A stretch of 64,000 bases of DNA from Puccinia triticina (Eukaryota > Basidiomycota > Pucciniomycetes > Pucciniales > Pucciniaceae), in the NCBI RefSeq assembly GCF_026914185.1, contig NC_070559.1, positions 1,922,001-1,986,000 of the forward strand, written 5' to 3'. Below are positions 26,613 to 64,000 of the stretch, piece by piece. Numbering within the stretch: position 1 is the first letter of the stretch; each line of letters starts with the position of its first letter. The notes below the pieces were generated by a model. That model had not been told where the DNA came from, did no database searches, and was given only the letters and a program-made list of their open reading frames with translations. Position numbers and translations under genes: made by a program.

Positions 26613-26619
26613 ATACAAG

Positions 26620-41412: not shown

Positions 41413-41654
41413 GGTACGGTGGTGTATGTTGTCGTGCTGGCCGGGGATACAAACAGGTGCTTCTCTTTTTGCCTTTTCTCACGCAAATCGCTTAGCGTCC
41501 TTGCCCATTCGTGAGCGTTTGCCTGGGCTGAATAAACAAATGAAGAGTTTATATCAGCCAAAAAAACATTACACAATTCACTACAAGAAGGGAGATACGA
41601 CAAGAATAGCCGGTCCAAATAATCTTGAGCACCGCTTGGTGGTAATGCAGAAGA

Positions 41655-41726
41655 GGTGTGGTGTACATAGGAGTAGCTGTGGCACGGTTGATGTGCACGC
41701 CGACCGCACTACTCGTACATAACACC
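41655..41726. repeat. Hairpin a between Tet-like and Kelch genes
   Basis: Arms GGTGTGGTGTACATAGGAGTAG and CTACTCGTACATAACACC enclose GCTGTGGCACGGTTGATGTG and the following GCACGCCGACCGCA. The central part is nearly identical to that of hairpin b, while the arms differ but still pair. Confidence 0.7.
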
Positions 41727-41750
41727 AGAACCTCCCTGGTCCAACGGCTT

Positions 41751-41840
41751 CCCCAAGAATCAGTGCCTTGTAGAATTAGCCGTGGCACGGATGATATGCA
41801 CGCCTACTGCACTAACTCTACAAAACACCAATTCTTGGGG
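41751..41840. repeat. Hairpin b between Tet-like and Kelch genes
   Basis: 90 bp. Arms CCCCAAGAATCAGTGCC + TTGTAGAATTAG and CTAACTCTACAAAACACC + AATTCTTGGGG enclose CCGTGGCACGGATGATATG and GCACGCCTACTGCA. It sits just downstream of the Kelch stop. Confidence 0.75.
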
Positions 41841-41876
41841 AGCCATGAGGATTGAGGGAATCTATCAGAGGAAAAC

Positions 41877-43472: not shown

Positions 43473-44696
43473 GGATGATACAGGATACTCCTGGGTTGAT
43501 GGGTGGATGAGCGCTTGCGCAATGAAACGATTGAGGTGGGGGTTGAACAACAGATGCAGACGAGTGATCAGGGTTGATAGGCAAGTTGTAGAGGTTCTGA
43601 AAACTGCAGGCAGGGGTTGTTGAGCGATTCCAGGAGAAGATTACAGAAGAATGAGGTCTTTGCTCTAGAGAGCAACACTCACATTCAAAAACGAGGTTCG
43701 GATCATTCGTTAGCTGAGGTACAAACAGGTGCGAGGCACTCACCGGAAGGAGCAGCGGGTCTAGATCAAGCATTTGAAATGAGGGGCGCGCGGTGGGAGA
43801 GTGATGCTGTAAGCAACGAATTCAAAGAGCGAGCGAGCAGACAAGAAGATCAAAAAACCCTACCAATTGAAAATAAAACAGCACATCAGACTGGAAATAC
43901 ATATATGTAGTACTCAACGGTCCTCAATGATAAAATGAAAAAACAAGCCCTTGCCTCATGAATATTTCGCAACAGTTCATCAGAAAGATGCCAGTGGGAG
44001 ATCAGGGAGATGTGGTCCATTTGAGTAGAAATTTTGGAATCTAGATGGTTAGGATCCTCATATGAGGCTTTGTACATCTAAATGACATGAAAAGCCTTTG
44101 AATGAACAAATGGGAAGTGGGAACTGGATGACGTTATGAATATCAGGCAGCATGTTGAGTAATCAACTGTGATTTGCTATTTGGGTACACGTCAATTTGA
44201 GCAGGGGATATGATGGTGAGGTCCGATCTGGACCCAAACAGACCCAGACAAAATCATGTTGAGAACTTAAACATGTGAGGTGATTTTTTGACATCTCTCT
44301 CACGAGGAACATGCAAATACAAAATTTGCCTGATGTGACAAATCTTGGAAAGTATAGTGTATCAATTGTTCAGAGTTTGCTGGCTATGAAATCATGCTGA
44401 AAGGATCACAAAGTTAGAATTCACTTGAATAGACTACATACATATCTATGAAATGAAATGTTTATATAACAGATTCAATAGCAGGGAGGCACATGCAAGG
44501 AAACAATTTGCTCAGTAGATTGTCATGTACGGGCAAGCGAAGGCAGAAATGAAATCTGTATTCAAGTGAGTTGTACGAAATTCTATTTCCCCTCTGGAAC
44601 TGAGGTTGTATCATGTGGGCATATGTATTCCCATGATTCAGTCTGCGCATGCATGATTCTTTACATAACTGGAGATAGAGGAAACAAGAAGCATCC
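43473..44696. other. Intergenic, Kelch upstream region
   Basis: No supported gene. A minus-strand frame at 43886-44077 ('HWHLSDELLRNIHEA') looks exon-like but has no partner. A half-palindrome CATGTACGGGC lies at about 44524. Confidence 0.35.
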
Positions 44697-44722
44697 CCAT
44701 CATGTACGTGCGTACATGATGG
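44697..44722. promoter_or_regulatory. Palindromic site 1 (upstream of gene at 45087)
   Basis: A 26-bp palindrome with only the central two bases unpaired; the core is ATGTACGTGCGTACAT. It lies about 370 bp upstream of the start codon at 45087 and is followed by GGTGGACATC, a tail also seen after site 3. Confidence 0.7.
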
Positions 44723-45086
44723 TGGACATCGAAAGATGCACTGGCAGGGAAGTCAAGTTTGTATGGAGATTCAAACAAGATCCAACTCTGAATGATCTTC
44801 TGATCTAATTATGTGTGATGATTAAACGGGCAGCAATCATAGGGGCGGAGAATGGTAGGATTAAGCTCCGGCGGTGGGATATCTTCAAGTGGTAAAACAG
44901 AATAATGACTCCGAAGATGACTCAGGTGTAATATCAGCTATTTCTGCTGCCAAGATAAATTTGATGTACTACCCAAAAACTGGAAGGCCCTGATGTATAT
45001 TACCATGCCAGCACAACCATAAAAGGAATTTCTTGCCAGCCAGTCCTTTGTTTCCTGATATTCACCTACAACAAATTATACACACA

Positions 45087-45917
45087 ATGATGAAAATTTT
45101 TGCAAATTGCTTCTTAGACACAAATACCCCACGAAGCAGTCATGGTGATATGATTAGTTTTAATAGTGTCATCTTCTCACGTAACTCCCAAGCTAGAATT
45201 TACCCACAAAAAATGAGACGTTATGATATAAATCTCTGTAATACACCCAGACCAGAAGTTATTCTGCCATCCACCACACAAATTCTGCTTTCAGGAACTC
45301 TGATCCTTACACAAAATATACCATTCCCAACTATTACATCCGACAACGGCAATTGGATTCCGCATTCTGGATTGCTATGTATCCACCTGGGGGAACCGGA
45401 TGCAACGGAGAGAATGCATGTGGGGGGCAGAGTGGCAATCACAAGTGACTTTTCGCCCGGTGGGAACAAATCAGATCATGGATTTCTGATTGCTGTAGAT
45501 GCCAGCGAATTGAATGTTTGTCATTTCCCTACTCTAAGCTATGTGTGCGGGAAACCAACTGTTGATCCTTTTGCATATTTCATGGCCAATCAGCCCACGC
45601 CAATGCGTCTGGTAGGTGATCCACAACTGAATAACCTTAACCTGGCCAGGTTCAGGGTGGGAGATCAGATCGAGATGAAGGGATCAATTGTTCCAGGGGA
45701 TTGTACCAGCTTATTAACTATCCAGGTGTGTGTAAAATTTAAGGCTAGCTGAGCGGGAATCATGAGAGATTTTGATTGAGCCCTCCGGAAACTGACTGCA
45801 GTAATCTTCCAACAGGTCTTTGATATAAACAAACTACCCAGGAATACAGGGCATAATCACTACCTCCGGGAGAGACCAAATCGGCGTTTTAGATTAGACT
45901 CACACAACCGCTACTAA
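45087..45917 (+). CDS. Unknown protein, member 1 of a tandem pair
   Basis: Exons 45087-45725 and 45816-45917 (246 residues). The 90-bp intron has GTGTGT and CAACAG ends and keeps frame. The ATG at 45087 was chosen because the paralogue at 46882 starts at the matching place (MMKIFANCFLDTNT versus MIEIAANLLLANTR). Shared blocks include 'TQILLSGTLILTQN' / 'SQIFLCGKLSLCPV', 'DNGNWIPHSG' / 'ENLNWYIHHG' and 'VGDQIEMKGSI' / 'HGDCIRFSGNA'. Alternating short beta-like segments around 'GDxIxxxG' suggest an OB-like barrel, a weak inference. No signal peptide or membrane segment. Function unknown. A palindromic site lies upstream. Confidence 0.7.
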
Positions 45918-46372
45918 GAAGATTCAATTTGTGCTGGTTGCCATTGGTTGTTATGCAGATGTTACTCAATTACAAGTTTTCTTGTCTTGCCTGGTATGCT
46001 GGGGAATTTTTTATCTGCAAACATTTTCTCATTTGAGGACAATTGGATTACAAGCAGTAAGTTACCATTTACAATGTTGTCCAGTTTTCCTTGCCAGAAA
46101 ACATGCTTTACACAAGAGGAATGAAGTCCTCGTCAGAAAATGAGGCAGATTTCTATGATGGAACTTCCAAATTGAGGATTCCCTTGTGAGGTTCCAAGAA
46201 AGAGTTTTCTTGTTACGTTAGCCTTTGGGTAATTGGGTGGAGAAGACCTTGGGGGCATGGGTGGTGGTATTGTTGTTTTTATGTATTACACATTGTAGAA
46301 ATAGACTTTGCAGTCCCTCGTGCACATGGATATTTTGGTGGTGGAAGGGATTTTGTGAAATGGGTCACAATC

Positions 46373-46388
46373 ATGTACGCGCGTACAT
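46373..46388. promoter_or_regulatory. Palindromic site 2 (upstream of gene at 46882)
   Basis: Perfect ATGTACGCGCGTACAT, about 490 bp upstream of the start codon at 46882. Preceded by GGGTCACAATC; GTCAC is also found before sites 5 and 6. Confidence 0.75.
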
Positions 46389-46881
46389 GGCAGTCAACAC
46401 TGAATTGTACATATGCAAGAAACTATCACAAAGGTTAATCACACAAATATGTTATGTATTATCCAAATAAAACGGTTAACAGGAAGGCCTGACAAAGGAT
46501 ATCTTACACATAAAGACAAACAAATCCAAACCAAAATGCCTGCCGTGGAGAACACACTTTGTAGCAATTTTCAAATTGCACCAATTAACACAGTAGAACA
46601 AAGAGGCACATTGACTTGTACATTTCAAAATTGATACATAAAATCCTTTATTCCTGAGATGAGATAACGCAGGGAAGGAAAGGGAACAAGTCATTTGCCT
46701 TTGTGGGTGGAAGGCCAAAACAAAAGTTGCTTGCCCTCCAACACTTTGGGATAGATGAGTATCGCCATTAAAAGGCGGGATTGAATGCTAGGTGCCTCTT
46801 CTTGTCCCACCCCTCCCTAGAATTCCTCGATTGCCAGTCATAACTCAGCCTGCCGTATTTCCAAACTATTAGACAATCATA

Positions 46882-47578
46882 ATGATTGAGATTGCTGCCA
46901 ATTTACTTCTTGCAAATACACGTAGTATACAACGAGTTGGAGATGAAATACACCTTGGGACCCCTATTGCATCATTTAATCTTCCCCCATCATTCACTGG
47001 GTATCAAGAATATCATGTTGTGCTCAAATTTCATGATCCTGATATTCCTGCAATCTTCGACAATACTCTCAGCCAGATCTTCCTATGTGGAAAATTATCA
47101 TTGTGTCCTGTATCCAACCAACCAACGATTACTGTAGAGAACCTTAATTGGTATATTCACCATGGAGAACTCCCCGACCTATATCAATACGAAAATGCCC
47201 AGGTCTTTGGTATGGCTCAAGTTGTGCAGGTCCACTGGCATCCGATTCACAAGAGGGTCTCTCATCTTGAAATTGTGGATAATACCATCAAGCAGGTATG
47301 GGATTTACCTCTAGACTGAACACTAAATATAGCAGTTCTCTAAAATGCCCATGAACATTTGCTTGAGTGTGCCCCATCAAATTGCTGACCTTGTTCCTGC
47401 GCAGTCCCACTCAGGTCGAATCAATTTGTGTTCACTCAATTCCGAGGCGCTCAAAAACTTTCAAGACCTCAAACACGGAGATTGTATTAGATTTAGTGGC
47501 AACGCAGCTCGAGTTCCCAGTGTCCGCTACGGATTTGTTTCTGTTGGTGTATGTGATACTCCATATAATCAAGATTGA
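46882..47578 (+). CDS. Unknown protein, member 2 of a tandem pair
   Basis: Exons 46882-47295 and 47405-47578 (195 residues). The 109-bp intron has GTATGG and GCGCAG ends and keeps frame. Paralogue of the gene at 45087, shorter by about 50 residues, mostly in the middle. Its C-terminal block 'LKHGDCIRFSGNAARVPS' followed by 'YGFVSVGVCDT' aligns with 'FRVGDQIEMKGSIVPGDC' of the first. Both lie on the same strand 960 bp apart, each with its own palindromic site, so the promoter appears to have been duplicated with the gene. No stop or frameshift. The family is not recognised; OB-like folding is a guess. Confidence 0.7.
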
Positions 47579-48319
47579 CTCTAACAATAAGCACTGACTC
47601 GTGGTCTGGGTGTATATCATATTAGGTTGAGTGTATAGTGAAACTTTCTCGATCAGAGGTAACTCGATACGGCTTGAGGAGTGATCCAAAAAAGAGATAC
47701 AAACTCGAAGCAAAGGATTGGAAGGCACCCCGCACTATACGAAGAAAATCCACCAAGAAATTTCACTGCCGCCAAACGTGACGATTGGCATTTAGTTTGA
47801 TTTTTCTCAAAGATTACTACATATATATAACTTATGTCCTAAAGGAGAAATGAATTAAAACCGTTATCAAATGAAAAGATATCCCATGCGCCAATGACTA
47901 GAAACCGCAAGTGATGCATGGAAGGAAGACTACTATGGTCACTGAGGTTTTGTTGATGAATACCCATTGTCTGAGGCAAGAATCTGCTTGGTGTTTGGAA
48001 GTGTTACACATTCCACGGTTTGCAAAACGCACAAACAGATGTAAGGGAGAGCATTAGAGAGACTTCATTTCAGAAATCAGCAGAACAATGGCAATTTTTA
48101 ATCTTAAGCGCATCAGGGCAAGATGAATTACTTATAAACAATTGTGGCTAGGAACAACAGTTGACTAGTACAGGCTTGGTATCTGGGAAGCTGAATTTGA
48201 GATATAAAAGACCAAATCACAAAGGGAATAAAAGACGAGAAGAACAGTTTGAGTGAGAAGAGGCCAGACAGCAATAAACTTCAGCGTATGTACTGATGTA
48301 TATGTACAAGTTTGAAAAA
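47579..48319. other. Intergenic between convergent genes
   Basis: No gene recognised. It separates the convergent 46882 (+) and 48731 (-) genes. Confidence 0.4.
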
Positions 48320-48730
48320 TCAACTGTCTTCTATATGACGGGAAGCATGGGGAATAAGGAAAGGTGAAGTGGGCTGGCATTCTGCCCAATGACTGAGAAA
48401 ATCAAGAGTAATGGCCTGAGCAATCTCATGTTGGGTTGGGGTCTTTTCCATGTGGGAGATTCTGTTCGGCAGGCGGAAGACAGGGGAGAATATCTTAACA
48501 ATGTATGCTGAGAGGTTTTTCCAGATGGGTTCTTCGGGCGTATGAGTTGAACTTGAGTGTTGTTTAATTACTGAGATTACCTGGGTGAATTCCATGCAAT
48601 CAGAGACAACGGCGTGGCGGTGGTTCTTGGATGCTAGAAAAAGACTGCAAACACCACCGAGGAGGAAAAATATCAAGGGCTGGTAGTTTTGACAACGCTG
48701 GTAGGACTGTAGTTTGCGAGTTGATTCATC
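48320..48730 (-). other. Open continuation beyond a TGA stop
   Basis: Past the TGA at 48731-48733 the same frame stays open for 136 more codons ('TRKLQSYQRCQNYQPLIFF', then 'LGGVCSLFLASKNHRH...'). This is either the original C-terminal part of the upstream protein, lost by a CGA to TGA change, or a chance open frame. Confidence 0.45.
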
Positions 48731-50890
48731 TCAAAGCTGGATCAATTCTGATGATTCTTGGTTCGTCTGAGTGAGAGCATCAGATGATTTGTGGGTGGCA
48801 CCGCGGTTCCGCTTATTGGTTTTCTTGTGCACCTCTGTCTGTGGGGGCTTGCTGAGTGCATGAGTTTGGAAGATGACATATGCTGAGAGAACATCAAGAA
48901 TGAGGTTTAAGAAATCATGGAGAACATTGAAAGAATGAGATTGCTGGGGGGCTGGAGCATCTGAGGTAGGATTTTCTTTGGCAGACTCAAAGCTGGAGGG
49001 GCGGTTTTTGATGGCCTTGATGTATTGAAGTACTTGTACGCCTTGAATGATTTGATCGTTGCTCTGCTGGGTTGTGGGGACGGGTTGCTTGTACAGACTA
49101 TTGGCCATGATCTCCACAGAAGCGGCAACAAGCTTTGCCCACTCTGAGATGGAGGTTTTGGTAGGGTGCGCAAGTTGATAAAGGAACCGGACTAGAGTTG
49201 ATTTGGGATGGGGTGTCTTTGCAGCAGTAGAGATGTAGGATTGCGGCGGGATGGATTTGTCCTTGTTTCCAAATGTGGCAAGCAAGGGGAAATCAATGAT
49301 GTCGGGACAGTACCACTGTTCATTGGTGGATGGTGACAAGAAGCTGTCCGCTAGATACATGGAAGAAACAACCTAACAGTTAGTTACGCTGTGTTTGGAG
49401 ACACGAATGTAGAAAAAAGAAAAGAACACTTACCCAGGGAGCTGATTGTTTTAATCCATGATGCGTATGAGCATGCCGTGCGTTGGAATTGGAATTCAGG
49501 GTTTGAAGGAGTTGAAGCGTGCATGGACTGTACACAAAATTGAACCAGAGACGTGAGGGAAGCCCAGGTGGTTCGGTACCTTTGCCAAGATGGTTTGGAT
49601 CCCTCGAAATCTTGGTGAATATGAACAACTTTAATTCGCACATCGACAGACTTGAGGATTGTCAGCGGGTGAACAACAACCTGAGAAGAGGGATCGGAAG
49701 GGTTTGGGTTGGATGGGCCACTTGGGGTTGGATTTGCTTGACCAGAATGGGTTTCTGGGATACTTTGGGAAGGTTGCAGAACTTGGTTGGTTGGGGATGG
49801 TTGAGGGGCCGTTGTTGTTCCGTGTGCAGGTGGCTCCACTGGAGTGGCTAGATTAGTGTTGGAGACCCCAGCTTTCGCGTTGTTGGTCTCAGTCGCAGCT
49901 GATGGAGAGGATTCGGGCGGGATATGATGTTCTGGATTTCCAACCACTGAGTTGCAAGCTACAGGTCCAACTTGAGAGTCGGCAGGTAGAGTTGGTGAAG
50001 CCTGCACAGCATTATCAGGGGTATCCGGAGAGTGGTGCGGTTCCAAGTCTCTGATGGTGGCAAGAGCTGCTTGTGCACCCATTGGGGTGTTAATGTTTGG
50101 ATTCTCGGTAGGGGCATGTTTCGGGATGGTAAGCTGAGATGTGTCCGATTTGTTTGAGAGAGCTGCTGGATTGGAATCATTACTGTTTGTTGGAGTCTTG
50201 GTATTCTTTTCCAACAAGTCGGCTGGCCGACCAGAGGCACCTTTTTTGGCTCGTTTCTTGGGGGGCTTGCTCGAAGTTGCTCCAGTTGATGTTCGAGGTG
50301 ATGTGGAGCTTGGTTTGATTGATTCAATTTTGATGGCTTCATTGTCCGGAATCTCGCCTGTTTCCTCCCAGGCTTTGCAAGAGCTTCAGTCAAAAGAGAA
50401 GGCAACATCCGGATGGGGAGGGCAATCTGGGAAAACTTGAACTCACTGCGTTTCGTGCTGGTAATGGAATTAGCAAGGACATCAACTAGGTGTTTCCAAC
50501 TACGGGGAAGCTTGAGATTTCTCAGCCCTTTGGCTGCTTGCTCAGCAGCTTGGATCGTTTGTCCAAATTCCTCCGCTGTAATTCGCTGGATTTCATTATC
50601 AAGGATCGGTTCAGTAGGATTCAATGGAAGAGGGCCGCCGGGATCACTTTTGCTAATTGCAAACTCCTCAAAAGTGGGGGCTGGTAACATCTTGACTGGA
50701 AAGTTTGCTTCAAGTACCTGCTGACCTAGGGGGATATGGGTAAAGTGAGAAACAGCCTGGGGGGTGATCATGAGGATAAGTCTATTGACTTACTTGGTGG
50801 TGGAGTCGGAGCATCTGATGGGAGGGGTGGTTGCAGAGATGTTAATTCCTGAGGAAGCTGAGGGGCAATTCTGGACTCTGGCTCTGCCAT
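48731..50890 (-). CDS. Unknown proline/serine-rich protein
   Basis: Model: exons 50890-50794, 50725-50437, 50383-49434 and 49350-48731 (651 residues). Introns 1 and 3 have good GTAAGT/TAG ends. Intron 2 (53 bp, GTTTTC...TGAAG) is inferred from a frame change between two clearly coding parts. The N-terminal third has 'LPRSWKHLVDVLANSITSTK'. A basic 'KPPKKRAKKGASGRPADLL' resembles an AT-hook or nuclear signal. A long Pro/Ser/Thr/Asn-rich low-complexity region follows, then a helical C-terminal part ('VRFLYQLAHPTKTSISEWAK'). Probably nuclear; function unknown. It ends at a TGA beyond which the frame stays open to 48320. Two palindromic sites lie 567 and 693 bp upstream. Confidence 0.6.
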
Positions 50891-51065
50891 GTTAATATGA
50901 ATTGAGAGCAGTAGTTATTTCGCCAATGGTTTTTGAGGATGTGGGGGGGTCACAAAAATAAATGATGCGATGATAGGGGAGGAATGAGGTGAAAGTGCAG
51001 AGGAGGAGGAGCCACTTATATATTGAGGATTTCATTCCAGAATGATCCCCTTGTGTAAAATTTTT

Positions 51066-51389
51066 TCACTCAGCCTTTGTCCACCCACAATCCACCTTTG
51101 TGATTAGATTTGCTGACAGATCTATTTGGTATAACCAAAACCAGACTAAGCATGGTTTTGACTTAGACAATAGATTCCTCAGGCTGTAATGTGTAAAGTT
51201 TGTGATGTGCCAATTCATGGTTTTGGTAGGAGACGTTTTGCAGTCAACAGTCATGCGCATGATGAAGTGATCAGGACAGCTGTAATGTTCAAATAACTTC
51301 ATTAGACTGTTACTCAGATTATTCATGGAACTGCCCAGATCTGGAGCAATGATCTTAATTACAGGATTATGGGCAACTGGCAGAGACAT
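51066..51389 (-). CDS. Small open frame, doubtful
   Basis: ATG at 51389, 107 residues ('DLGSSMNNLSNSLMKLFEHY', then 'FIMRMTVDCKTSP'). It reads coding-like but has no known family. It lies between the palindromic sites (67 and 194 bp upstream) and the start of the proline-rich gene, so it is an alternative target of those sites. Confidence 0.3.
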   Translation of the reverse strand: MSLPVAHNPVIKIIAPDLGSSMNNLSNSLMKLFEHYSCPDHFIMRMTVDCKTSPTKTMNWHITNFTHYSLRNLLSKSKPCLVWFWLYQIDLSANLITKVDCGWTKAE

Positions 51390-51456
51390 TTGGATAAGTC
51401 AGGTGAGGTCCCATGCACAAGTGAACTTCAAGGATTTCTGAAGTTGGTGCAAACTC

Positions 51457-51472
51457 ATGTACGCGCGTACAT
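51457..51472. promoter_or_regulatory. Palindromic site 3
   Basis: Perfect ATGTACGCGCGTACAT, followed by TAGAGTGGACATC. It lies 567 bp upstream of the start at 50890 (minus strand). Forms a pair with site 4, start to start 126 bp. Confidence 0.75.
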
Positions 51473-51582
51473 TAGAGTGGACATCAGACTCACTTCCGGT
51501 CCCGCATTTGTACCGAATTGACTGAGTATATATCAGGTTATCTCAAATCATGATAGCTTCTGGCAGGATGAGCCCCTCCCCT

Positions 51583-51598
51583 ATGTACGCGCGTACAT
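51583..51598. promoter_or_regulatory. Palindromic site 4
   Basis: Perfect ATGTACGCGCGTACAT, followed by GAGAGGGACATCTC. The tail GAGAGGGA is identical after site 6, eight kb away. Confidence 0.75.
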
Positions 51599-51791
51599 GA
51601 GAGGGACATCTCAGCATTAATCAATGCCGTATATATTTTTCATGTGTAGGTGACAAACAGCTGGCCCCATGGATACAAAATACTTAGTTACCAAGTAATC
51701 TCGAAAACAATACAGCAGCTGGAGCATCCCTCAATGATAAGCGTTTCAACAGGCAAATTGATATGGAAATGGGTGAGATGATAAAATAAAG

Positions 51792-53493
51792 CTAATCAAC
51801 ATTCATCCTCCCTCCGGCAGCCGTGGCCGAACCCTCTCCGGGAGCTAAACTTGGACCAACATTTCCAGATTCATCTTCTAACCTCCGTTTGTTGTTGTTA
51901 CGAGTTGGGAGTTGAGAAGCGGATTGTTGACCAGTGGATGTGGCGGTGGTGAAACAGTATGTTTGGAGATTCTTGGTAATCTCTGGCAGCCCCATTTTTT
52001 TGACCTTGGAGATGGTTTGTTGCTCAAAAGGACTCAGGAGTTGCCACCAAGCATCGGCATAGCAATCACGCGGCAAATCTCTGGGGACCCCCTTGACGCC
52101 TTTGAAATTCTTGATTCGAGTTGCGGAGCGGCCATAGATCTTCTGATTAGTGGCAATAGTCTTGTGGTGATCTGCCTGTGCCTGTACCATTTTGTCGAGA
52201 CAGTGAACAACGGAGGTGAGATGGCTGCTACGCCAATTCGGGGAAACGGTTAACAGTAACGTGTTCTGATCGCCATCTTCAATATCGGAGCCACAGTCCT
52301 TGTTTTCAACAACGTGCGCCAGTAGTATATTCTCTTTTAGGACTTGACCAAGCATCTTGCACCTGTTCTCTCGTATCTTTAACACACGGAAATATATATT
52401 TACATATTTTGTCAGAATGAGTTACAGATAGACAGGAGAAGTAGAAAGGATGTACGGACTTTCTTCCTCCATCGTTGGTATTGTGCCCTCGTGGCTTTTT
52501 GATCCTTCAATTTCTTGTAATCGTCACCGCTTATGTTTCTGGACTCGCAAATTTCGCGGCATTTAGTATGGAACCATTGTTGGATTATTGCTTGGGCCTG
52601 TGAAGCCTGCTGATTGGTTAAGGGCATTGATTGACGGATCCACTCAATAGATTTGGTTGCCAAAACCTTGACCACAGTGGAGTTCCAAGGCAAATCCGCA
52701 CCAAGATGGGTATCCCAGTCAAAAGTGAGTCTTGAGATACCGGCCAACGCAAGAGTCCTCTCCACATCGGCCTTGGTTTGAGAGCTGATGGCTAGGCCCT
52801 TATGTTGGCCTTTTGAGAGAGCAGGAGTAAAGGGGGGCGACTTGATGTTCTTCCGTATTTCTTTCTCTGCCTGAGAGACAAAGTATTCTATCTCTGCCGG
52901 AGTCTTAGCCTTCAACGTGAGGCGTAATTGATTGAGTTGCTTCTTGATTTCAGCCGTCCTTCTTTCCACCCAGTATTGGGCCTTGATTTCTTCAGCGTTT
53001 GGAGAAGCTGGGTAATCATGAGGCTGAGTTGGATGACCAAGAAAAAACTTGACAAAGGTTTGGATACTCCGAGAGATCTTATCACAATGTTCCGCCAGAG
53101 CCTGTTTTCCCGTAATTCCTCTTATCCGTTTTTCAGCTCGATTATGGTCCTCATCAACCTCCGCCTCCTCCCTCGCGCGCCGGGCATTTTCAACCACAAA
53201 CTTTGGTTCTAGTCGAGACTTTTCAAGCAAAGCTGATGGCTGGTTCAGTTGTGTTGAAGGAATTGCTCCTACGGATTCAAAACATTTCTCAGCAAGAAAA
53301 TACATACAGCAAAAAGTAGCTACTCACCATCAGGACCGGTTTCCATTGCAGAACTGTTTCCCACTGATTGGGCTTTTGGAAGAAATCCATCTACGACCGC
53401 CGAAATCCAACTTTCATCTGGATCCACAGGAGAAGATGTATCTCCCTGGTTTCCATTCCCAGATATGCTCTGTTCATCTTGTGCTGAAGGCAT
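51792..53493 (-). CDS. Unknown protein with PRxLPxxCY motif, paralogue 1
   Basis: Exons 53493-53328, 53268-52460 and 52376-51792 (519 residues). Introns are 59 and 83 bp; the second has a weak donor, GTCCGT, but is the only in-frame solution. Frame is kept. An acidic N-terminus is followed by a charged helical region ('ENARRAREEAEVDEDHNRAE'), a mid-domain ('AGISRLTFDWDTHLGADLPW') and a C-terminal 'GVKGVPRDLPRDCYADAWW' followed by 'LLSPFEQQTISKVKK'. The last block matches the gene at 60094 ('EVPRNLPLNCYSLEYLSTLS'). The tail ('NNNKRRLEDESGNVG') is basic, suggesting a nuclear protein. Family not recognised. It lies next to the Tnp2-like gene on the same strand and could be an accessory gene of that element, an inference only. 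Confidence 0.65.
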
Positions 53494-53814
53494 GGGGACT
53501 GATTGGATTCGAGAAGCTAATTAGTAGATTTTTATGGGGCAAAAAGCAGATGATAGACGGGTTGCAGTATACAATGCAAAGGTGTTGTTGGTGAAATCAA
53601 GCAAAAGAGGTGGTTGAGGATATGGAATAGTTTAAGGAAAACGTGAAATCATGTTGGATGGAGTTATAAGCAGAACACAAATTTGGGGGAATTGCCGGGC
53701 AATTCAGGCAGGCTCCACTTTGTTTCTCAAATGGAGGAAAATACAGTTATACGGATGTTGCAATTCAAAAAAAGGGAGCATGTGGCTAACAAATAAATAA
53801 TGATCCCCTTTGTT
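53494..53814. other. Intergenic, upstream of paralogue 1
   Basis: 320 bp with no motif recognised. No palindromic site occurs here, unlike upstream of paralogue 2. Confidence 0.4.
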
Positions 53815-56800
53815 TTATGCCTAAAAATCGTTGCATAGGCCTTCCCATCCCTTCATGTGTAAATAAAGCCCAAATAAAATATCAGAAAGACATAGACCAG
53901 CACGTTTTAATGGTAGTTGTTGAGACTTACAGCTGTCCCCAATCCCACAGCACTCATTTTTTGTATTTCAAAACCAAATGTTGAGATCAGATTTAAAAGA
54001 ATTGCAACATGTCCGATGACCCTTTCACTGTCAATTACCTCAGTCAGGTCGTGATCAGATTTCACTAAGCGGCAGTTGAGATCTGGGTAATCCTTGTATG
54101 GATCTTCCTCCCATCCCACTTCCTTGAATGCTTTCACGATCAACCAAGTTTTCCCAGCTGTTTGTTCCAATTGGAAAATTTGCTCCACTTCACCAAATCG
54201 CTGGTCCTTCCCTAGGTAGAACTCGACCAAGGAATTTGCTGGATGCCGATCTTTAGTTGTGAATGTCTTGCCGTTGAGTTTGATGTATTCAACAAGATCA
54301 ACTTTTGAGTTAAGTGGGGGTACACCTGCATGTTGACCAAGCTTTCCCCTTGAACCTTCCTTTCCAGCCACCGCCCGCTTCCATTTTGACATCAGAGTTC
54401 TGTTCAACTGAGTAGATTTCTTCTTATTGTTGTTCTCCGAGCCGCGGTTGTGTTTTGCAGTGTGGTCTTTGAGAACTAACTGGAATGTTGAGTTGATATG
54501 CCATTCCTTCATCAATGTCTTCGGTATATCATCTAAGTACAATACACATGTCACCTTCTCAGTAATTAAATTCTCACAATGGCAATAGTTACACACAAAT
54601 AAGCATGAGACTAACCGATGTGATGGTTTGTTGGCATCCTCTGCAACATTCCATTAACTCTTTCCTGTGCCCAAGCTGCTGTCGATTGAGGTGGGCCAAA
54701 TCGGCAGATAACTTCAGAGTAATGCTGTGTCAGATGTAGATTTGGCTTGCTTGGTGCTTCTGGCCAGCCTTTTTGAAGACACTTTTGATAATCCAAGATT
54801 AAACTGTCAAGCTCATCAAGATCTTGAAGTTTGATCTTTGGGAGAGTCAGGAAGTGAGAAATTTTGGATAGCAAGGTAGTTGATTCTAGGAGTGAGGATA
54901 TCCTTATTTTGCTTTCCTCAGTTGCGCAATCCTTGTATGCTGTGGTCCAAATAGGAATCAAGGCAATGGGATAGTAGATCTTGTAAAGTATCAGCCATTC
55001 TGCTGCTTTTAAAGATCCGTGGGTAGCCAATCCCAAGTTGCGTGGAACCCTATCAATCCAAGAGGGTACAATTGTATGCAAGATAGTCCGCCGTACTATG
55101 TCCAGCTCCTCTGGCAAGAGTTTTGGTTGGTTGAAATCCGGAATTGGTGATGCAGCAGCTCTGCGAGCTCTATGTCAAGGACGAGTCGCAGTGTGATCAC
55201 TTCCACTCTCATCTGCAGAATCGGTGGTTACCTCCTCATTTGCGTCACACAGCGCCTTCTTCCGCATCCGCAGGCTATAGGAATGGGCAGATGACCCATC
55301 TGATGTTGCACCAGCACCACTACATGTTCTGCTTTGACCAAGACCTAGCGTTTTTGTGGCTGGTGTTTGCTTGGCTTTGGCTGCACGGGCTCGCTTGTTT
55401 GGTTTTTCAGAGGTTTGATTTGATTCTTTGATATCGTCTAATTTCCGCTTGCCCTTGTTGGTGGAGTTAGGGACACAATTTGTTGCAAAAGGAGTATCGG
55501 TATATGACTGGTCATTCTGCCATTCCGCATCCTTCTCTTGAATATCCTTAAGCTTGGATGCGACTGATGGCAATGACATGAAGCGCATCGTGTGATCTTT
55601 CAAGTCACCCAAAATCAAGGCATGCATCAATTCAATCGAGCAGAATTCTATTGGCCTCCAGTATGGGAGCTCATTGAGCACACTCCATCTTGCGCCATGT
55701 TCCTTCACAAACTTCTTACGTTCAGTCGCATTTTCTAGTTGAAGCCAAAGTTTTGCATGTTTTTGGTGCTCTTCATTCGTCCGCCGGGTAAACTTTGTGG
55801 TGTCCGTTTCCTCAATTTCATGCTTGCTCAACATACAAAAAGAGCAAAACCTAATTGAGGCGTGACTTCCAAATCCAGCAACCTTCCGGAGAGCAGGAAG
55901 ATCTGCGATCAGGGGAAAGATCACAGCCCGTATAGTTCTTCCTTGAGCATGAGAAGCAGTGGATTCAAAGAAGACTCCATTCCAAAATTCTTTCAATTCA
56001 TTCACCAGCGGTCGTAAGAGATGGTTCACCTCGTCTAGACTGGGTTCGTTGGGCCCAGGGATAATTCCGAAAAGGAATATGTTTTCCTGCTTGTAGCGCT
56101 GATTTGGAGGAAGGTTCAAGCAGATCAAGACAATCTCTCCAACAGAGTTATGCTTCCCCAGATTTGAAGTTCCTTCGGCATTGAACCAGTCAAGATATAG
56201 GCTGAACACAAGATTTCCAGAATTCTGGGTAAATATCCCAGTTCCATCGTCCAAGTTGGGGAATTCGCGCCAGATTTGACCATGCCACACATCTTCCATG
56301 TCGTGGTGTGGTTCCCATCTAGTTTTGGGAAGGCTGGAGTCTAGCAAGGTCTCGAAAGAATTCTGAGAAAGCCGCTGTTTCAACCATGACTTGAGAGTTA
56401 AGTATGAGTATGTCCGAATTGGTTTTGATGCTTGCTGTTTATTGAGTTTGAAGAGGGCTTGATCACATCTGGGTACAATTTCTTGCAACTTAGCCCACTT
56501 ACAATACCCCTGATATTGGGAAAAGAAGGACTGGGTGCATGTGATCAGAGGATTTTTGTCTTCTTTTATCAGAGGGTAGAGTGCAAAAAATTTTTGGCAA
56601 CATATTTGTGTTGTCAGATCTGGTACAAGGCCAAGTCGATGAAAAACTGCATCTCTAGTTTTGGGAATCTGTTGGATCATTGCTTTAGCATCAATAATTT
56701 GTTCCTCAGTGCTCCACAGCTCTGCCAAGAATGAGATGTTCTGCCTTGCTGACTCGAGGAAAGATGCGGACCCACCTTTGCTCAGTTTGTCTTTTAAGAC

Positions 56801-57180
56801 AGATTGGGCCATCTGAATCATGACCTGTGTGCAAAACTGCTCCTCCAAAAGTGGCGCCTTCCTCGTGTTGTTTTCCAGTGGATTAGAGGTGGAGGCAGTC
56901 AGACCAGTCTGGGTCAAACTTGGATTAGCTCAAGATCTAACTATGCTTTTAAAGCAGATGTGATTCAACTCACCCGGATCGGATTAGAGCCCATTGGGTG
57001 TGCCTCCGGATGATTCGTCCCTTCCTTCTGGAGTTGCATAGTTGCTTTCTTCTGATGCAATTGATAGTCTTTCCGTCCCAAGACCCTCCCAGGAACAATT
57101 CCACCGCCATCTTCTGCATGCTGCGTGGTGTTGCACCCATAGAATTCACAATGGCAAACAAGATTGGTTGTTTTAGGCAT
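53815..57180 (-). CDS. Tnp2-like (CACTA-type) transposase, one in-frame TGA
   Basis: Exons 57180-56974, 56908-54616, 54532-53931 and probably 53820-53815 (about 1,035 residues). Introns of 65, 83 and about 110 bp have GTGAGT, GTTAGT and GTAAGT donors. The N-terminal exon has a Cys/His cluster ('VCHCEFYGCNTTQHAEDG'). The core matches Transposase_21/Tnp2: 'SLYLDWFNAEGTSNLGKHN', 'IFLFGIIPGPNEPSLDEV', 'PLIADLPALRKVAGFGSH', 'CSFCML' and 'EFCSIELMHALILGDLKDH'. The likely acidic residues are D of LDWF, D of ADLP and E of IELMH, where relatives often have D. A C-terminal region typical of the fungal family follows ('VIGHVAILL'). A TGA at 55175-55177 interrupts an otherwise open 764-codon exon. No flanking inverted ends were found, so it may be an immobile or domesticated copy. 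Confidence 0.8.
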
Positions 57181-57876
57181 GTTGCGAGTTTGTTTGTTTT
57201 AATTCGAGTAGATTGGGGATGAGTAATTTCAGACGTCTTCTAGATGTTCGATGGGACACGAGGAAAAAATTCACATTCATACATAAGCTGGGGAAAGCTG
57301 GTTGATGCAAGCTTTATATCATCGCTACTCAGATACCAAGATCTACTTTTTTCATGAATGTTTTGAGGAAACAGTTACGTACTTGGCACCCAAAAGTTGC
57401 ATGTGCATATCTTGACTCACCACCTGACCAAAGAATATGCAAGCCACCAAGTTGATGTGATGTACTACAATCATGCACAAGTGCAAGTCATTTAGATAGC
57501 AAGATGAGCATATGTACATATCATGTGCTTCAGTACATTTTCATGAGGAGCTGGCCCAGGTCGGACTTCATCTCACCCTGTGATGCTTCCTCGTTGAACT
57601 GGATGTACATTTTTCGGTTGGATTGAATCTCAAGTTCTAATGCCCCTTGTAACCCCGCGACCATCATGCCTTCAGATGCTGTTTCGGAAAAGACTGCATC
57701 AACTGAATCCACATATTTGTGGTTGCGTTAGCCTGTTATAAAATTTTACATCATAAAAAGGGTGTTGTACCCACGGTCCACAACTCTGGAAATGACATCC
57801 TCCCCCATTACAAAAAATATTAATTGGCAGAGGACCTATCTTATCTCAATCCAACATCTCATCAACCAATGGAACC
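57181..57876. other. Intergenic, upstream of the Tnp2-like gene
   Basis: No supported gene. A 60-codon minus-strand frame (57530-57712) may be an exon remnant. Confidence 0.35.
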
Positions 57877-58781
57877 TTTTCGTACTATTCTATCTCCCAT
57901 ACAAATTGTTTGGCTCAAAGACATGCAGACAATGATTGATGAATCACTCAAGATTTTTGAGCCAGATTCTCATGAAGAGCAACAATTGAACATTAGCAAC
58001 ACCAAAGAAAGGGAACATGAGGCTTGGCGTTGGTATATTTTGTGTGATGGAAAAATCAGAGCGGGAGCACAAGATATGCGTATTCCTGAATGGGCAATCC
58101 CAAACGTTGTGGTATACAAAATGGGAAAAATCAAAAGTTTTTCTCTCATTTGCGTAATTAGTCATAGAATGCCTCATGGTACAACCATATGGACCCCAGA
58201 AATGGAATCTACGGCCAAATTACCCCCTAGTCTCCACTGAAAGTGTAACTGTAGCCCCACTGCACTGGAAGTTAGACCCTCCGGACAACCTGTAGCACCC
58301 TGTTGACCCCTGTCACGCACCTCAAGCCACCTTTCCCTACTCCATGGTATCTCCACTGCATATATTATTTTGCCTTTGTTTTCTAGCTGCATGACATCAT
58401 CCAGCACTGCCACTGCAGTCTGTGCCATTGTTCTCCGCATTCTAGAACTTTCACCTCCACTTTTGTTTGGTTTTATTGCATCACATGCCATTGTTCCCTG
58501 CATCATGCATGCACCCCTCGCATAAATTGTACACAGCGCAGGCCAGCTAAAATCCCTCACTGGGGCTGCCCTGGAGCTAAAATCCCTCACATTTGTCTAT
58601 ATAAGGGGCTCTCTCCCCCTCATTTGTAGCTTGGGAGTTTATTACGGATCAGTGATTCACTCACCACCTTGTACTCTCAACACTTACAACTATACTCATA
58701 ACAAACCTTATATATCAATAACAAATCTTTATAAAGTGTATTGAATAAACTCATCTTGAGCATTCACTCCTATCACCTAAT

Positions 58782-58815
<34 letters not shown>

Positions 58816-58990
58816 AGCTGGTAGTATAGAAGGGCAGAGCTTGCAACTCCTTCATCCCCTTCTCCATTCAGCAAAAGGGTTTCACAACCACTTTTGAGTC
58901 TTACAACGTCAAGGCCATATGGGATGCAAAAAGGAACCGTCTTGGAAAAGGTATTTGGCCTCAAGTTCTTCTTCTACTTTTCTGCTGAGC
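57877..58990 (+). pseudogene. Unknown gene cut by a solo LTR
   Basis: From an ATG at 57877 the frame runs '...EREHEAWRWYILCDGKIRAG' to '...PEWAIPNV', where the LTR begins at 58108. Removing the LTR and one ACGT joins it in frame to 'KAIWDAKRNRLGKG' at 58910, then a stop or a donor (AAAAG|GTATTT). The insertion is therefore in an exon. The first part is about 77 codons with a helical, charged character. Family not recognised. It is inactive unless the LTR is spliced out or supplies a new promoter. Confidence 0.6.
58108..58905 (+). mobile_element. Solo LTR, 4-bp duplication family, copy 3
   Basis: 798 bp, TGTGGTATAC...GAGTCTTACA, flanked by ACGT at 58104-58107 and 58906-58909. TATA box CTATATAAGG at 58598. 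The right end (AGCTTGCCAAGCTGAGC, CAGCAAAAGGGTTTCAC) is shared with copies 1 and 2. Confidence 0.9.
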
Positions 58991-59689
58991 TGATTTTTCA
59001 ATTCACATTTGACAAGGACCATTGATGTTTTCCACGCCAGATACCACCCCAGGGGGATTGGGCGGCTCGGCAGCAGGCCAGCATTCTTAGGATGATCAAG
59101 GTTAAACAATTGGGTATAGTTTGATCGTAAGTTATCAGAACAAAAGACAACTGCTAACTTCCTGTAACTAACTGTTCCTTCTACCAACAGCTAGCTGGCT
59201 TATCTCTCTCTGGATTCCACAATACTGCCTCATGGTTTCCTGTTTTTGGTTCTGTTCTGTGCTTCCTCTGTCTGGATGGTAGTAAATCTTTGGTTTGTTC
59301 TGATCCAGATTCAAGTGAGAAATTCACGATCTCCTATCTATCTGATGTCTGTGGTTGTGTATCGCAATGAGATGGCTTAATGTGTCCCCCGCACGTCAGA
59401 CAAATCTATTCTTTTTCCCATGTCTGTGTCTCTGCTTTTGGAATCTACTTCAGCTAGCAATCAATTTTTGATGTATTGACGTTGTCTGGAAATATTAGGT
59501 TATGCTATACAGTGATCAGAATTTTACACCAAAGTTATATTGCTTTGGCTTAACACTCAGGAAAGGCATTGAATCTGCTGGATGTTGGGACTAAAGAATA
59601 CATGGTATTGGTGTTTGCTCACGAGGAAGAGATAGCAATGGTTGCGGCTCATGTACTCTCCAATATTTGATCTGGTGGGTGTCACTGTC
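58991..59689. other. Intergenic
   Basis: No gene recognised. Confidence 0.35.
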
Positions 59690-59705
59690 ATGTTCGCGCG
59701 TACAT
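59690..59705. promoter_or_regulatory. Palindromic site 5
   Basis: ATGTTCGCGCGTACAT, one base off the palindrome, 389 bp upstream of the start at 60094. Preceded by GGTGTCACTGTC. Paired with site 6, 133 bp apart. Confidence 0.65.
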
Positions 59706-59822
59706 TGGCGGGAACCTTTGAGGGCAAAAAACCGATTATGTGTTTTCACATGTGATGGGCCCAAATATTCAGATTGTAATACCAAGCTGGAACAAGCAAT
59801 GCATTTGCCCAAAGTCACCCCC

Positions 59823-59838
59823 ATGTACGCGCGTACAT
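59823..59838. promoter_or_regulatory. Palindromic site 6
   Basis: Perfect ATGTACGCGCGTACAT, 256 bp upstream of the start at 60094, preceded by AAGTCACCCCC and followed by GAGAGGGATACTC. Confidence 0.75.
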
Positions 59839-60093
59839 GAGAGGGATACTCAATTGACCAAATACAACTCCTTTCATCAAATGAGAGCCAAACTGAGTTC
59901 TGAGTTGGCCAAGGCCCTTTGTCAATTACATAAACTCTCATTTGCCTTTCATTCACATTAATAATTTCTCTCTCCCCTCATCCCTTTGCACTTTCCTAGA
60001 CACAACCTGATTTGTGTAATATATAATCTGGACCTCCTCTTGTCTTCCCCCTCCTGACTCTGCTCTTTTGTCCTGTGATTCCTTTACTTCAGA

Positions 60094-61199
60094 ATGTCCT
60101 TATCCCAGACTCATTTCGCCAATGGCAAACCACCTGTTGGTGTTGCAAAAGTTAATCTTGCATACTCAAAAATCCTCCTAAATTCCAAATCATCATTTAG
60201 TCGTTGTATTGCTGCCTTCACGCGAGCTCTCTTAGACATAGAATATGACCGCAAGAAAACTCCTTCAGAGGCATGGAAGCTCCCACCTTCTGCCCACGAT
60301 TTCCACATTGGCTCTAACTTGCCAGACTCCATTCTCATACAGCCCATTGATCCCATTCCTGTTGGTTCAACATTACCCACCTCACAGAAGATATCCCCAA
60401 TCTTTCGAATCCTATTTGTCCAAGACCTCTCAAAATCTTGTTTTCCTGGTGTTACTTTTCGCTGGTCTCATCCATGGGATTCTCACTGGAACCAACTTTT
60501 TGCAAAATTTATCCTAAAACATTGGAGGAATGCCTATGCAGCTGGAACATTTACTCCTTTTTTCATGGATCCGGTTGAAGCCTCAAACACATCCTTCCAG
60601 CTTGGCGTTCTCCACAGATGGTTTCTTGGAAGGCAGAAAGGATTACGATTGGGTCAGTTTTCAGAACAGCACAAATCCAAGAAGAAAAAATCCAAATGTA
60701 AATCCAAAGTACGAATGCAGGTATGCCACATTATTGCTTTTCTCTTGCCCAAAATGTGGGCTAAGCTCTTTCTTCATTTCAGATCTCGCAGCACCGTCAA
60801 GAAACGCTCTCTACACTCCCATTCAACCCTAACACGAAATCTTTATTCGATAACATCAAGGCTACTTCTGAAACTGAGATCAATCCCCCTCGCTCTCTGT
60901 TCAAAATCCCTTTGCTCTGGAGGTCACCGGAGTTCTCAAAATTTGCGCAAGAATTGGATCAGATTTTTATTCAGAAGAAGACCAGCACCAAAGGACGCCA
61001 ATTTGTACATGATTTTGTCTTGGAAGCTCGCAGGCAGACTTCAACCACATCTCCTCCAGCTGGCTTCAAGGAAGTTCCTCGTAATCTTCCGTTGAACTGC
61101 TACTCCCTCGAATACTTGTCAACGCTTTCCGAGTCCCAGAGAAATCTTCTTAATCCAACGGATACCATCAACTTCTTGGAATTGCTAACAGTCAGATAA
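60094..61199 (+). CDS. Unknown protein with PRxLPxxCY motif, paralogue 2
   Basis: Exons 60094-60720 and 60783-61199 (347 residues). The 62-bp intron (GTATGC...TTTCAG) keeps frame. The N-terminal half has 'CIAAFTRALLDIEYDRKKTP' and an aromatic block ('GVTFRWSHPWDSHWNQLF'). A very basic stretch ('EQHKSKKKKSKCKSKVRMQ') sits at the exon end and could be a nuclear signal. The C-terminus carries 'GFKEVPRNLPLNCYSLEYLS', matching the gene at 51792. It is shorter than paralogue 1 and shares only this C-terminal domain clearly. Two palindromic sites lie upstream. No stop or frameshift. Function unknown. Confidence 0.7.
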
Positions 61200-61351
61200 G
61201 GCTTGCTGTCCACCGTGAGTTACATTCAGCGACTTTCAAGCTGTCATATTGCTCATGAGTAGCTGAGCACATTCATACTGCTCATTTCCCCCTGATGGTA
61301 CACTTAGCCTATTTACAAGACATTCTCAAATCAGTAAGTACAAAAAGGAAA

Positions 61352-63585: not shown

Positions 63586-64000
63586 TTGTGGAAAGGGATG
63601 GGTAATTTGATTTATTCTGTTACACAAATGCGAACTGAGAAAGACAGGGGAGATAGTGTGTTCCTTTTGAAACGTTCCAGAGATGGGCCACTGGGGGTAT
63701 CACTGAGCATGACAATATCAAAAAATCTGTTTTGAATTTGTTTGGCACTTGTATTTGGGCTCTTGAGCTCTGCAGGTTGGGTTAGGATGGTCCAAATCGC
63801 TACTTGATTACAAGAGCATGCAGGGTCAACTTGAACATATCATGAACATGAAATCATCTCCCCTTTGCCCCTTTGGATATTGAATCTTTATGTAAACTCA
63901 CAGGCAAGGATATTCATGAAGATTGTTTTTCTATGTTTAACGTGACAATTGAATATCCAATATGTGGGATATGTGGGAGTGACCTCACTTACGACTGCAA
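63586..64000. other. Intergenic, upstream of the helicase gene
   Basis: No gene or motif recognised. Confidence 0.4.

What the first reader, a model, noticed from the sequence alone, without database searches (positions are those of the whole stretch)
44697..59838. A 16-bp palindrome repeated six times upstream of four unknown genes
ATGTACGCGCGTACAT is seen perfect at 46373, 51457, 51583 and 59823, and with one or two changes at 44702 and 59690, and was not noticed elsewhere in the 64 kb. Each copy is intergenic, 250-700 bp upstream of a start codon (45087, 46882, 50890, 60094). Two promoters have a pair 126 and 133 bp apart. Short flanks recur too: GTCAC before sites 2, 5 and 6; GGTGGACATC/GTGGACATC after sites 1 and 3; GAGAGGGA after sites 4 and 6. 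A random 16-mer would not recur like this. The neighbouring Tet, Kelch, Tnp2 and SNF2 genes lack it. The core ACGCGCGT resembles fungal MCB-type sites. I infer a dimeric regulator controlling a set of uncharacterised rust genes, or a transposase site carried by a gene-bearing element.
Basis: partly seen in the sequence, partly recalled or inferred. Interest (0 to 1): 0.88.

Follow-up and report, generated by a model that had tools for sequence, protein, structure and literature searches.

The report
Family-specific palindromes in rust transposons
The repeated 16-letter palindrome is part of a longer two-sided DNA signal inside a 25-kb jumping gene of a rust fungus, and related jumping genes carry differently spelled palindromes at the same places, which suggests that each family marks its own gene switches for a protein partner that is not yet known.

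Summary
Observation confirmed: six sites within 3 mismatches in 64 kb, 0.05 expected. The "four unknown genes" belong to one transposon: 25,520 bp, CACCAGGGG termini, 3-bp duplication ATT, with TET-like, Kelch, Tnp2 and SNF2 genes. It fits the TET+ EnSpm transposons of rusts (Kojima 2025, PMC12730594). Of 255 perfect 16-mers in the genome, all 47 on contigs C1-C3 lie in copies of this element or its short relatives.

New here: the 16-mer is the core of a 34-bp palindrome, GTCAC-N4-core-N4-GTGAC. Relatives with 54-69% identical Tnp2 carry differently spelled palindromes, several perfect over 34-46 bp, at homologous places (13 of 16 places clear). Positions are conserved: about 2.0 kb upstream of the Tnp2 frame and 237-270 bp before gene F. 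Of 23 short gene-less copies chosen by their ends, 21 keep an exact site.

Best reading: binding sites of an element-encoded dimeric regulator that recognises its own family, in logic like VANC or Spm TnpA. The binder is unidentified and no function was tested.

The parts
39115..64000 (.). Left 24,886 bp of a 25,520-bp EnSpm/CACTA-like transposon; the right 634 bp lie beyond the window (L016 1-634).
   Evidence: Terminal inverted repeats and 3-bp duplication ATT; inverted copy at C2:8015924-8040648, about 99% identical.
39112..39114 (.). Target site duplication ATT; its partner follows the right end in L016.
39115..39152 (+). Left terminal inverted repeat, CACCAGGGGAGATATGTTCCCACTC...GGGAGTGCC.
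   Evidence: its first 25 bases at 273+289 places with up to 2 mismatches, control 0.
44693..44726 (.). Site 1 (core 44702-44717, one mismatch), between Kelch and gene C.
46364..46397 (.). Site 2 (core 46373-46388, perfect), upstream of ORF 46882.
51448..51481 (.). Site 3 (core 51457-51472, perfect), upstream of gene D.
51574..51607 (.). Site 4 (core 51583-51598, perfect), 126 bp from site 3.
59681..59714 (.). Site 5 (core 59690-59705, one mismatch that diverged copy C shares), between the Tnp2 gene and gene F.
59814..59847 (.). Site 6 (core 59823-59838, perfect); its near edge is 256 bp before the gene F ATG.
40402..41478 (-). TET-like 2OG-Fe(II) oxygenase exon.
   Evidence: Pfam PF20515, E 7.3e-53.
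42152..43773 (-). Kelch-repeat gene; that ORFs 42152-43357 and 43378-43773 form one gene is inferred.
   Evidence: Pfam PF24681, E 1.1e-40 for the main ORF; ORFs.
45087..45752 (+). Gene C, first large ORF; no Pfam match.
46882..47319 (+). Second + strand ORF of the C region; only a weak Pfam match below its cut-off (E 0.16).
48320..50890 (-). Gene D, multi-exon, of unknown function; its 3' end was not settled.
51792..53493 (-). Gene E, three exons, 519 aa; distant paralogue of F.
53907..57170 (-). Tnp2-type transposase region (main ORF 55175-56929, a stop at its end); the outer limits are approximate.
   Evidence: Pfam PF02992, E 2.9e-18; PF18759 Plavaka, E 1.2e-4, below its curated cut-off; 76 matches in the genome.
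60094..61199 (+). Gene F, two exons, 347 aa; related to E.
61836..63699 (-). SNF2-type ATPase exons.
   Evidence: Pfam PF00176, E 6e-24 and 4.4e-27.

Best explanation
The palindromes are operator-like binding sites of a protein encoded by the transposon itself. A dimer, or a dimer of two-module subunits, reads two contact blocks per half-site, the core block (GCGTAC or variants) and the outer block (GTGAC or GTGGAC), whose centres are about 10 bp, one helical turn, apart. Bound about 0.25 kb upstream of gene F, about 0.6-0.7 kb upstream of gene D (window) and near C and Kelch, it switches on or keeps open the element's own promoters. The same protein recognises short gene-less relatives, which keep the sites and so can be served in trans. 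Protein and site change together, so each family has its own palindrome. SHOWN: the element, the composite dyad, different spelling at homologous places of related elements, site-to-F spacing, presence in two short-element lineages. INFERRED: protein binding, dimerisation, promoter control, help in trans, co-evolution. NOT KNOWN: which encoded protein binds (D, E, F or C are candidates).
For: (1) Diverged copy C (Tnp2 76% identical) keeps six of six sites; four cores are identical to the window's counterparts, two differ at 2 of 16 bases, while 9 of 12 flanks (24-200 bp) align no better than 60 random pairs. (2) All six sites of copy C have GTCAC and GTGAC at the same spacing. (3) In 8 further elements chosen by Tnp2 and E homology, not by sites, 13 of 16 homologous places hold clear composite dyads, 1 a weak one, 2 none; 15 Markov shuffles of each stretch reach at most 13 of 17 symmetric pairs, the clear sites 15-17. 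(4) Both arms differ together between groups: in 32 sites found by core similarity, outer pairs 9-21 are symmetric in 253 of 416; with halves swapped 210 +- 9, maximum 244 in 5000. (5) 24 of 76 Tnp2 matches have a listed site 1.7-3.0 kb upstream, 0 of 76 at the mirror distance, 0.2% chance each; most site lists were cut off, so 24 is a lower bound. (6) Core to F start: 237-270 bp in seven copies whose F is 49-100% identical to the window's. (7) Of 23 short copies on C1-C3 chosen by exact ends, 16 hold the perfect 16-mer and 5 more the exact second-site form (counted by hand).
Against: No protein was shown to bind. D, E and F have no match above cut-off in the local Pfam copy; PF26792, listed for relatives of E and F, is not in that copy and could not be looked up; structure prediction was off. 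Swapping halves within a group does not lower symmetry (726 observed, 726.6 shuffled), so compensation is seen between groups only. Short elements have no genes to regulate, so promoter control alone does not explain their sites. Retention within short lineage 1 is moderate: second site intact in 16 of 22 copies, mean 16-base window 63%. The comparison of the two short lineages is biased, because all 11 copies were chosen for holding a site; a neighbouring block without the site is nearly as conserved (0.83 against 0.84). Two of 16 places had no composite site (L062, L068), and L062 and L065 each hold an unrelated inverted repeat of 15 of 17, so high symmetry alone is not unique to the sites. 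TET recruitment as a universal role is not supported: 0 of 13 matches with GTTC-core sites have a TET match within 25 kb.
Confidence: 0.55

Rival explanations
1. The sites are primarily cis-acting transposition sites: an accessory transposition protein assembles on them, as TnpA does on Spm ends, and promoter proximity is secondary.
For: Short gene-less copies bounded by the TIRs keep the sites: of 23 exact TIR pairs under 1.3 kb on C1-C3, 16 hold the perfect 16-mer and 5 more the exact second-site form. A second short lineage with diverged ends also carries the composite site, though its copies were chosen for it.
Against: In the full-length element the nearest sites lie 5.6 kb from the left end and 4.8 kb from the right end; sites sit at gene starts with conserved spacing.
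Confidence: 0.2
2. Family-specific anti-silencing sites (overlaps with the best reading): the bound protein brings the element's chromatin machinery, TET-like oxygenase and SNF2, to keep CpGs in promoters unmodified, as VANC does in VANDALs.
For: The element encodes TET-like and SNF2 proteins. The cores of the sampled families hold 2-3 CpGs. In 22 short copies 105 of 214 CpGs lie in the two 16-mers; all 22 were chosen for a perfect first site, which gives 66 of the 105. Young TEs are preferentially CG-methylated in P. graminis (PMC8444563, passages). Family-specific motifs in noncoding regions are found in VANDALs (PMC5735166, passages).
Against: Matches with GTTC-core palindromes have no TET match within 25 kb, 0 of 13. 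Some decayed sites, such as site 1 of copy B, hold no CpG. No methylation data were available. VANC motifs form dense arrays, these do not.
Confidence: 0.35
3. The sites are bound by a host transcription factor, and the elements borrow it.
For: Promoter-proximal position; the core contains ACGCGT, an MCB-like word (recalled).
Against: 47 of 47 perfect 16-mers on C1-C3 lie in transposon copies; spelling differs among related elements at the same place.
Confidence: 0.08
4. The dyads are hairpin or cruciform structures, sources of double-stranded RNA, or products of quasi-palindrome correction, and no dimeric protein is involved.
For: Perfect symmetry up to 46 bp, including linker bases. Unrelated inverted repeats also occur in the sampled intergenic DNA.
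Against: Window sites are symmetric in only 11-14 of 23 pairs; fixed GTCAC spacing; conserved distance to gene F.
Confidence: 0.1

Closest known systems
TET+ EnSpm transposons of Puccinia (Kojima 2025, PMC12730594: abstract, passages and part 1 of 2 of the Discussion read)
   Same: CAC..GTG termini, 3-bp target duplications, transposase with Plavaka/EnSpm similarity, TET-like gene.
   Different: In what I read the palindromes are not described; the paper's single use of 'palindrom' denies one at TET gene borders. Supplements were not read.
VANC / VANDAL anti-silencing system of Arabidopsis (PMC5735166 and PMC10398659, passages read)
   Same: Family-specific DNA motifs in noncoding parts of a transposon, changing between families.
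   Different: VANC21 motifs are 9 bases, arrayed in one orientation at high density; here single long palindromes or groups of two or three. No VANC homologue was searched for beyond the Pfam scans.
TnpA sites of maize Spm/En (recalled; Schlappi 1994 seen only as a reference in PMC10398659)
   Same: Element-encoded protein acting on the element's promoter and needed by non-autonomous copies.
   Different: Spm sites are short subterminal repeats at both ends; here the sites are 4.8 kb or more from the ends of the full-length element.
MCB/MBF cell-cycle site (recalled)
   Same: ACGCGT word in the core.
   Different: Related elements replace CGCG with GGCC; the perfect sites examined lie in transposons.

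Membership tests
TET+ EnSpm transposon (element) | 5'-CAC..GTG-3' termini with inverted repeats | tested here: met
TET+ EnSpm transposon (element) | 3-bp target site duplication | tested here: met
   ATT for the window copy; 24 of 25 TIR pairs under 6 kb among the loci fetched by then.
TET+ EnSpm transposon (element) | Tnp2/Plavaka-like transposase plus TET-like gene | tested here: met
   Transposase_21 E 2.9e-18; Plavaka E 1.2e-4, below its cut-off; Tet-like E 7.3e-53.
TET+ EnSpm transposon (element) | Conserved catalytic residues and the C(2)C, H(3-4)H motifs | not tested
   No residue-level check was made.
Spm TnpA-type system | Sites in subterminal regions of both ends of the full-length element | tested here: not met
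   Nearest sites 5,587 bp and 4,796 bp from the ends.
Spm TnpA-type system | Sites kept in non-autonomous copies | tested here: met
   21 of 23 exact TIR pairs under 1.3 kb on C1-C3 hold an exact first or second site.
Spm TnpA-type system | An encoded TnpA-like binding protein | tested here: inconclusive
   No Pfam match above cut-off in D, E or F; PF26792 could not be looked up; structure prediction unavailable.
VANC-type anti-silencing | Family-specific motifs in noncoding regions | tested here: met
VANC-type anti-silencing | Dense arrays of the motif | tested here: not met
   Single sites or groups of two or three, mostly about 99-145 bp apart.
VANC-type anti-silencing | Loss of DNA methylation when the protein is present | not testable with these tools
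   No methylation data.
Host MCB/MBF regulon | Sites upstream of host genes | tested here: not met
   47 of 47 perfect 16-mers on C1-C3 lie in transposon copies (loci); other contigs were not examined site by site except three sites on C4, which agree.

The most novel reading that the evidence does not exclude
A private recognition code among coexisting giant transposons: each EnSpm-like family in this rust genome marks its own promoters with a palindrome of its own spelling (34-46 bp), read by a cognate element-encoded protein, so that families with the same genes do not cross-activate; gene-less short relatives live by carrying the code; TET-bearing and TET-less clades use two different code classes (GTCAC/GTAC and GTCCAC/GTTC).
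Probability: 0.33. Interest if true: 0.8.

Novelty: new variant of a known kind. Interest (0 to 1): 0.63.

Why it matters
Coexisting transposon families with the same genes must tell their own DNA from that of their relatives. VANC in Arabidopsis is the worked example that I know of. Here a fungal lineage of large transposons, many of them TET-encoding, shows long palindromes of different spelling at conserved promoter places. The site can be read off the DNA without an experiment, and many families coexist in one genome, so the question 'which element protein co-evolves with the site' becomes directly testable. It also gives a handle on what the TET and SNF2 genes of these elements are aimed at.

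Tried and rejected
Host regulon or MCB site: rejected. Pure by-product of common descent: not enough, since copy C keeps the sites where 9 of 12 flanks do not align and relatives respell both arms. TET recruitment as the universal role: not supported. Per-site compensation within a group: tested, not found. Known DNA-binding domain in D, E, F: none above cut-off in the local Pfam copy; E profile against PDB sequences: 0 hits. Matching short elements for two other palindrome spellings (L070-L073): dispersed repeats carry them, but no CAC..GTG ends were found within about 850 bp; unresolved. Sites 5/6 of copy B were not examined (that stretch was not obtained). Literature: searches listed no paper on such sites in rust transposons; I judged from listings only, apart from the four papers named in the Full report section.

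Selection effects: for L062-L069 sites were picked by symmetry; the other 32-plus sites by similarity to a palindromic core, which favours symmetry in pairs 1-8, so the outer pairs 9-21 are the fairer test. The one-site-per-group test (151 of 189 against 123.5 +- 6.6, reached in 2 of 5000) includes the core pairs and is biased in that way. The two weak sites of E2_3.83 were kept. The short copies were all chosen for holding a site. Confidence in the best explanation was lowered from 0.58 to 0.55 on re-check because of the bias.
Full report
WHAT WAS CHECKED. In the whole 122.8-Mb genome the 16-mer occurs 255 times and its reversed control 0 times. The window lies on contig 2 of 18. A relative of gene D is 93% identical over 80% of the query to a protein of Puccinia triticina, so the organism is probably that leaf rust or a close relative; this is an inference.

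THE ELEMENT. Comparison with other copies showed that window 39115 to 634 bp beyond the window end is one transposon of 25,520 bp. It begins CACCAGGGGAGATATGTTCCCACTC and ends with the inverted repeat, and ATT flanks both ends. The first 25 bases occur 273+289 times with up to two mismatches, control 0. An inverted copy about 99% identical lies at C2:8015924-8040648. Genes: TET-like oxygenase, Kelch protein, Tnp2 transposase, SNF2 ATPase, and unknown genes C, D, E and F; E and F are distant paralogues (probability 97%). Kojima 2025 (PMC12730594; abstract, passages and the first of two parts of the Discussion read) describes TET+ EnSpm families of Puccinia with CAC..GTG termini and 3-bp duplications; this element fits. 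The window's transposase frame ends at a stop; I left it so.

WHERE THE 16-MERS ARE. The list runs in contig order and covers C1-C3 wholly: 17, 20 and 10 sites, 47 in all. Four are in the window. Of the other 43, 40 sit in DNA that aligns directly with this element or with short relatives, and three sit in two diverged full-length copies whose genes align (loci). Three further sites on C4 also sit in short relatives. Of 25 TIR pairs under 6 kb in these loci, 24 have matching 3-bp flanks. So the palindrome belongs to a transposon family.

THE REAL UNIT IS LARGER. Aligned outward from the core, the flanks repeat as exact GTGAC at offset 4 in 24 of 44 half-sites (29 with up to one mismatch) and at none of the other 17 offsets. 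The unit is GTCAC-N4-ATGTACGCGCGTACAT-N4-GTGAC. With up to three mismatches it occurs at 755 places, control 0. The core block and the outer block are about 10 bp apart, centre to centre.

CONSERVATION BEYOND DESCENT. Copy C (C2:5480000-5499800; Tnp2 76% identical) keeps all six sites in order; 14 to 16 of 16 core positions are identical to the window's, four cores wholly so, although 9 of 12 flanking stretches align no better than 60 random pairs. Copy B, whose flanks do align, keeps three of the four sites that I could see as perfect 16-mers and the fourth with three changes. Two lineages of short gene-less elements, with 42% identity per column, both carry the site and their best conserved 34-column window covers it (0.84), but all 11 copies were chosen for holding a site, and a block some 45 bp further on reaches 0.83 without it. 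Fairer counts: of 23 exact TIR pairs under 1.3 kb on C1-C3, counted by hand, 16 hold the perfect 16-mer and 5 of the other 7 the exact second-site form; 2 hold neither exactly. Within 22 lineage-1 copies the second site, not used to choose them, is intact in 16, against a mean of 63% for 16-base windows and at most 64% for 57 overlapping other windows with a CpG.

DIFFERENT PALINDROMES IN RELATIVES. The Tnp2 search gave 76 matches, from position 32 on mostly 54-58% identical (the tool scores only the best candidates). If the site were needed, these should have a counterpart. I looked at two homologous places in eight further elements (16 places), chosen by Tnp2 and E matches. Thirteen hold clear dyads of the composite type, one a weak one, two none. 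Examples: GTCACCCAATTGTACGCGCGTACAATTGGGTGAC; GATGTCCACCCTGATGTTCGCGCGAACATCAGGGTGGACATC; TGTCACCAAAACGTACGCGCGTACGTTTTGGTGACA; GACTGTGTCACACAAACGTACGGCCGTACGTTTGTGTGACACAGTC. Shuffled DNA of the same stretches reaches at most 13 of 17 symmetric pairs; two unrelated inverted repeats in L062 and L065 reach 15. Pattern searches for two of these spellings found 142 places (up to 2 mismatches) and 49 (up to 3), controls 0.

SYMMETRY TEST. With 45 sites of 13 groups, 726 of 945 pairs are symmetric; exchanging right halves among all sites gives 578 +- 17, maximum 632 in 2000. The fairer test uses only pairs outside the core of 32 sites found by core similarity: 253 of 416 against 210 +- 9, maximum 244 in 5000. 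Exchanging halves within a group changes nothing (726.6). So the symmetry is a property of each group's motif; compensation at single sites is not shown.

POSITION. Of 76 Tnp2 matches, 35 have a listed site within 15 kb. 24 have one 1.7-3.0 kb upstream of the frame start, 22 of these at 1.95-2.10 kb (the window copy and C2:3726388 at 2.9 and 2.7 kb); 0 of 76 have one at the mirror distance; chance is 0.2% per match. Other clusters lie about 5.3-5.5 kb and 10.3-11.6 kb downstream, in elements with different spellings. Most of the site lists were cut off by the tool, so the counts are lower bounds. From gene F's start codon the near edge of the nearest core lies 256 (window), 256 (L005), 255 (L012), 237 (L054), 270 (L056), about 237 (L058) and about 249-261 bp (L060) upstream; F is 49-100% identical to the window's, and the last two starts are read from partial alignments.

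TET ASSOCIATION. A TET match lies within 25 kb of 24 of the first 31 Tnp2 matches by score (66% identical or more) and of 8 of the other 45, which include two window-like fragments. Of matches whose site class I know outside the window's group, 8 of 8 with GTAC cores (five of them copies of one family) and 0 of 13 with GTTC cores have one. The TET search reached 25-30% identity elsewhere but scored 114 of 219 candidates, so absence is not proven. The classes follow clades, so this is no independent association, but it argues that the palindromes do not need TET.

MECHANISM. I favour an element-encoded dimeric binder that works at the element's promoters and also serves gene-less relatives. This unites promoter position, family specificity and retention in short elements. 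Logic of this kind is known for VANC proteins (PMC5735166 and PMC10398659, passages read) and, as I recall, for TnpA of Spm. An anti-silencing role is attractive because the element encodes TET-like and SNF2 proteins, because most cores are CpG-rich in CpG-poor short elements (biased as told), and because CG methylation marks young TEs in P. graminis (PMC8444563, passages). It is untested.

NOVELTY. The element is a known kind. I found no description of the palindromes in what I read of PMC12730594 or in the listings of searches; most subscription papers, and all supplements, were not covered.

Noticed in passing
L071 197-817, L073 1273-1649; by eye also parts of L048 and L070; perhaps window 19599-20383: A minisatellite with units of about 43 bp that are themselves near-palindromic (GATGACCGGTCTGTACCGGTCATCGAG-like) lies beside composite sites. 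A self-similar stretch in the window against L016 may be of the same kind; not compared.
   Followed up: partly
L070-L073: Dispersed repeats carry the composite sites of other families, but no CAC..GTG ends were found within about 850 bp; their nature is unresolved.
   Followed up: partly
window 58108-58904: About 0.8 kb absent from the copies in L005 and L011, apparently a later insertion between the Tnp2 gene and site 5.
   Followed up: no
window 55175: The window's Tnp2 main frame is 584 aa and ends in a stop, while several other copies of 97-99% identity have open frames up to 772 aa. The window copy may not be active.
   Followed up: no
window 40402-41478 and relatives: Most TET matches over 71% identical show a TAG inside the aligned stretch where the window copy is open; it may be an intron border or a real difference.
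   Followed up: no
window 25564-26970: 99.3% identical inverted copy in L016 2994-4403, just beyond the element's right end: a recent repeat.
   Followed up: no
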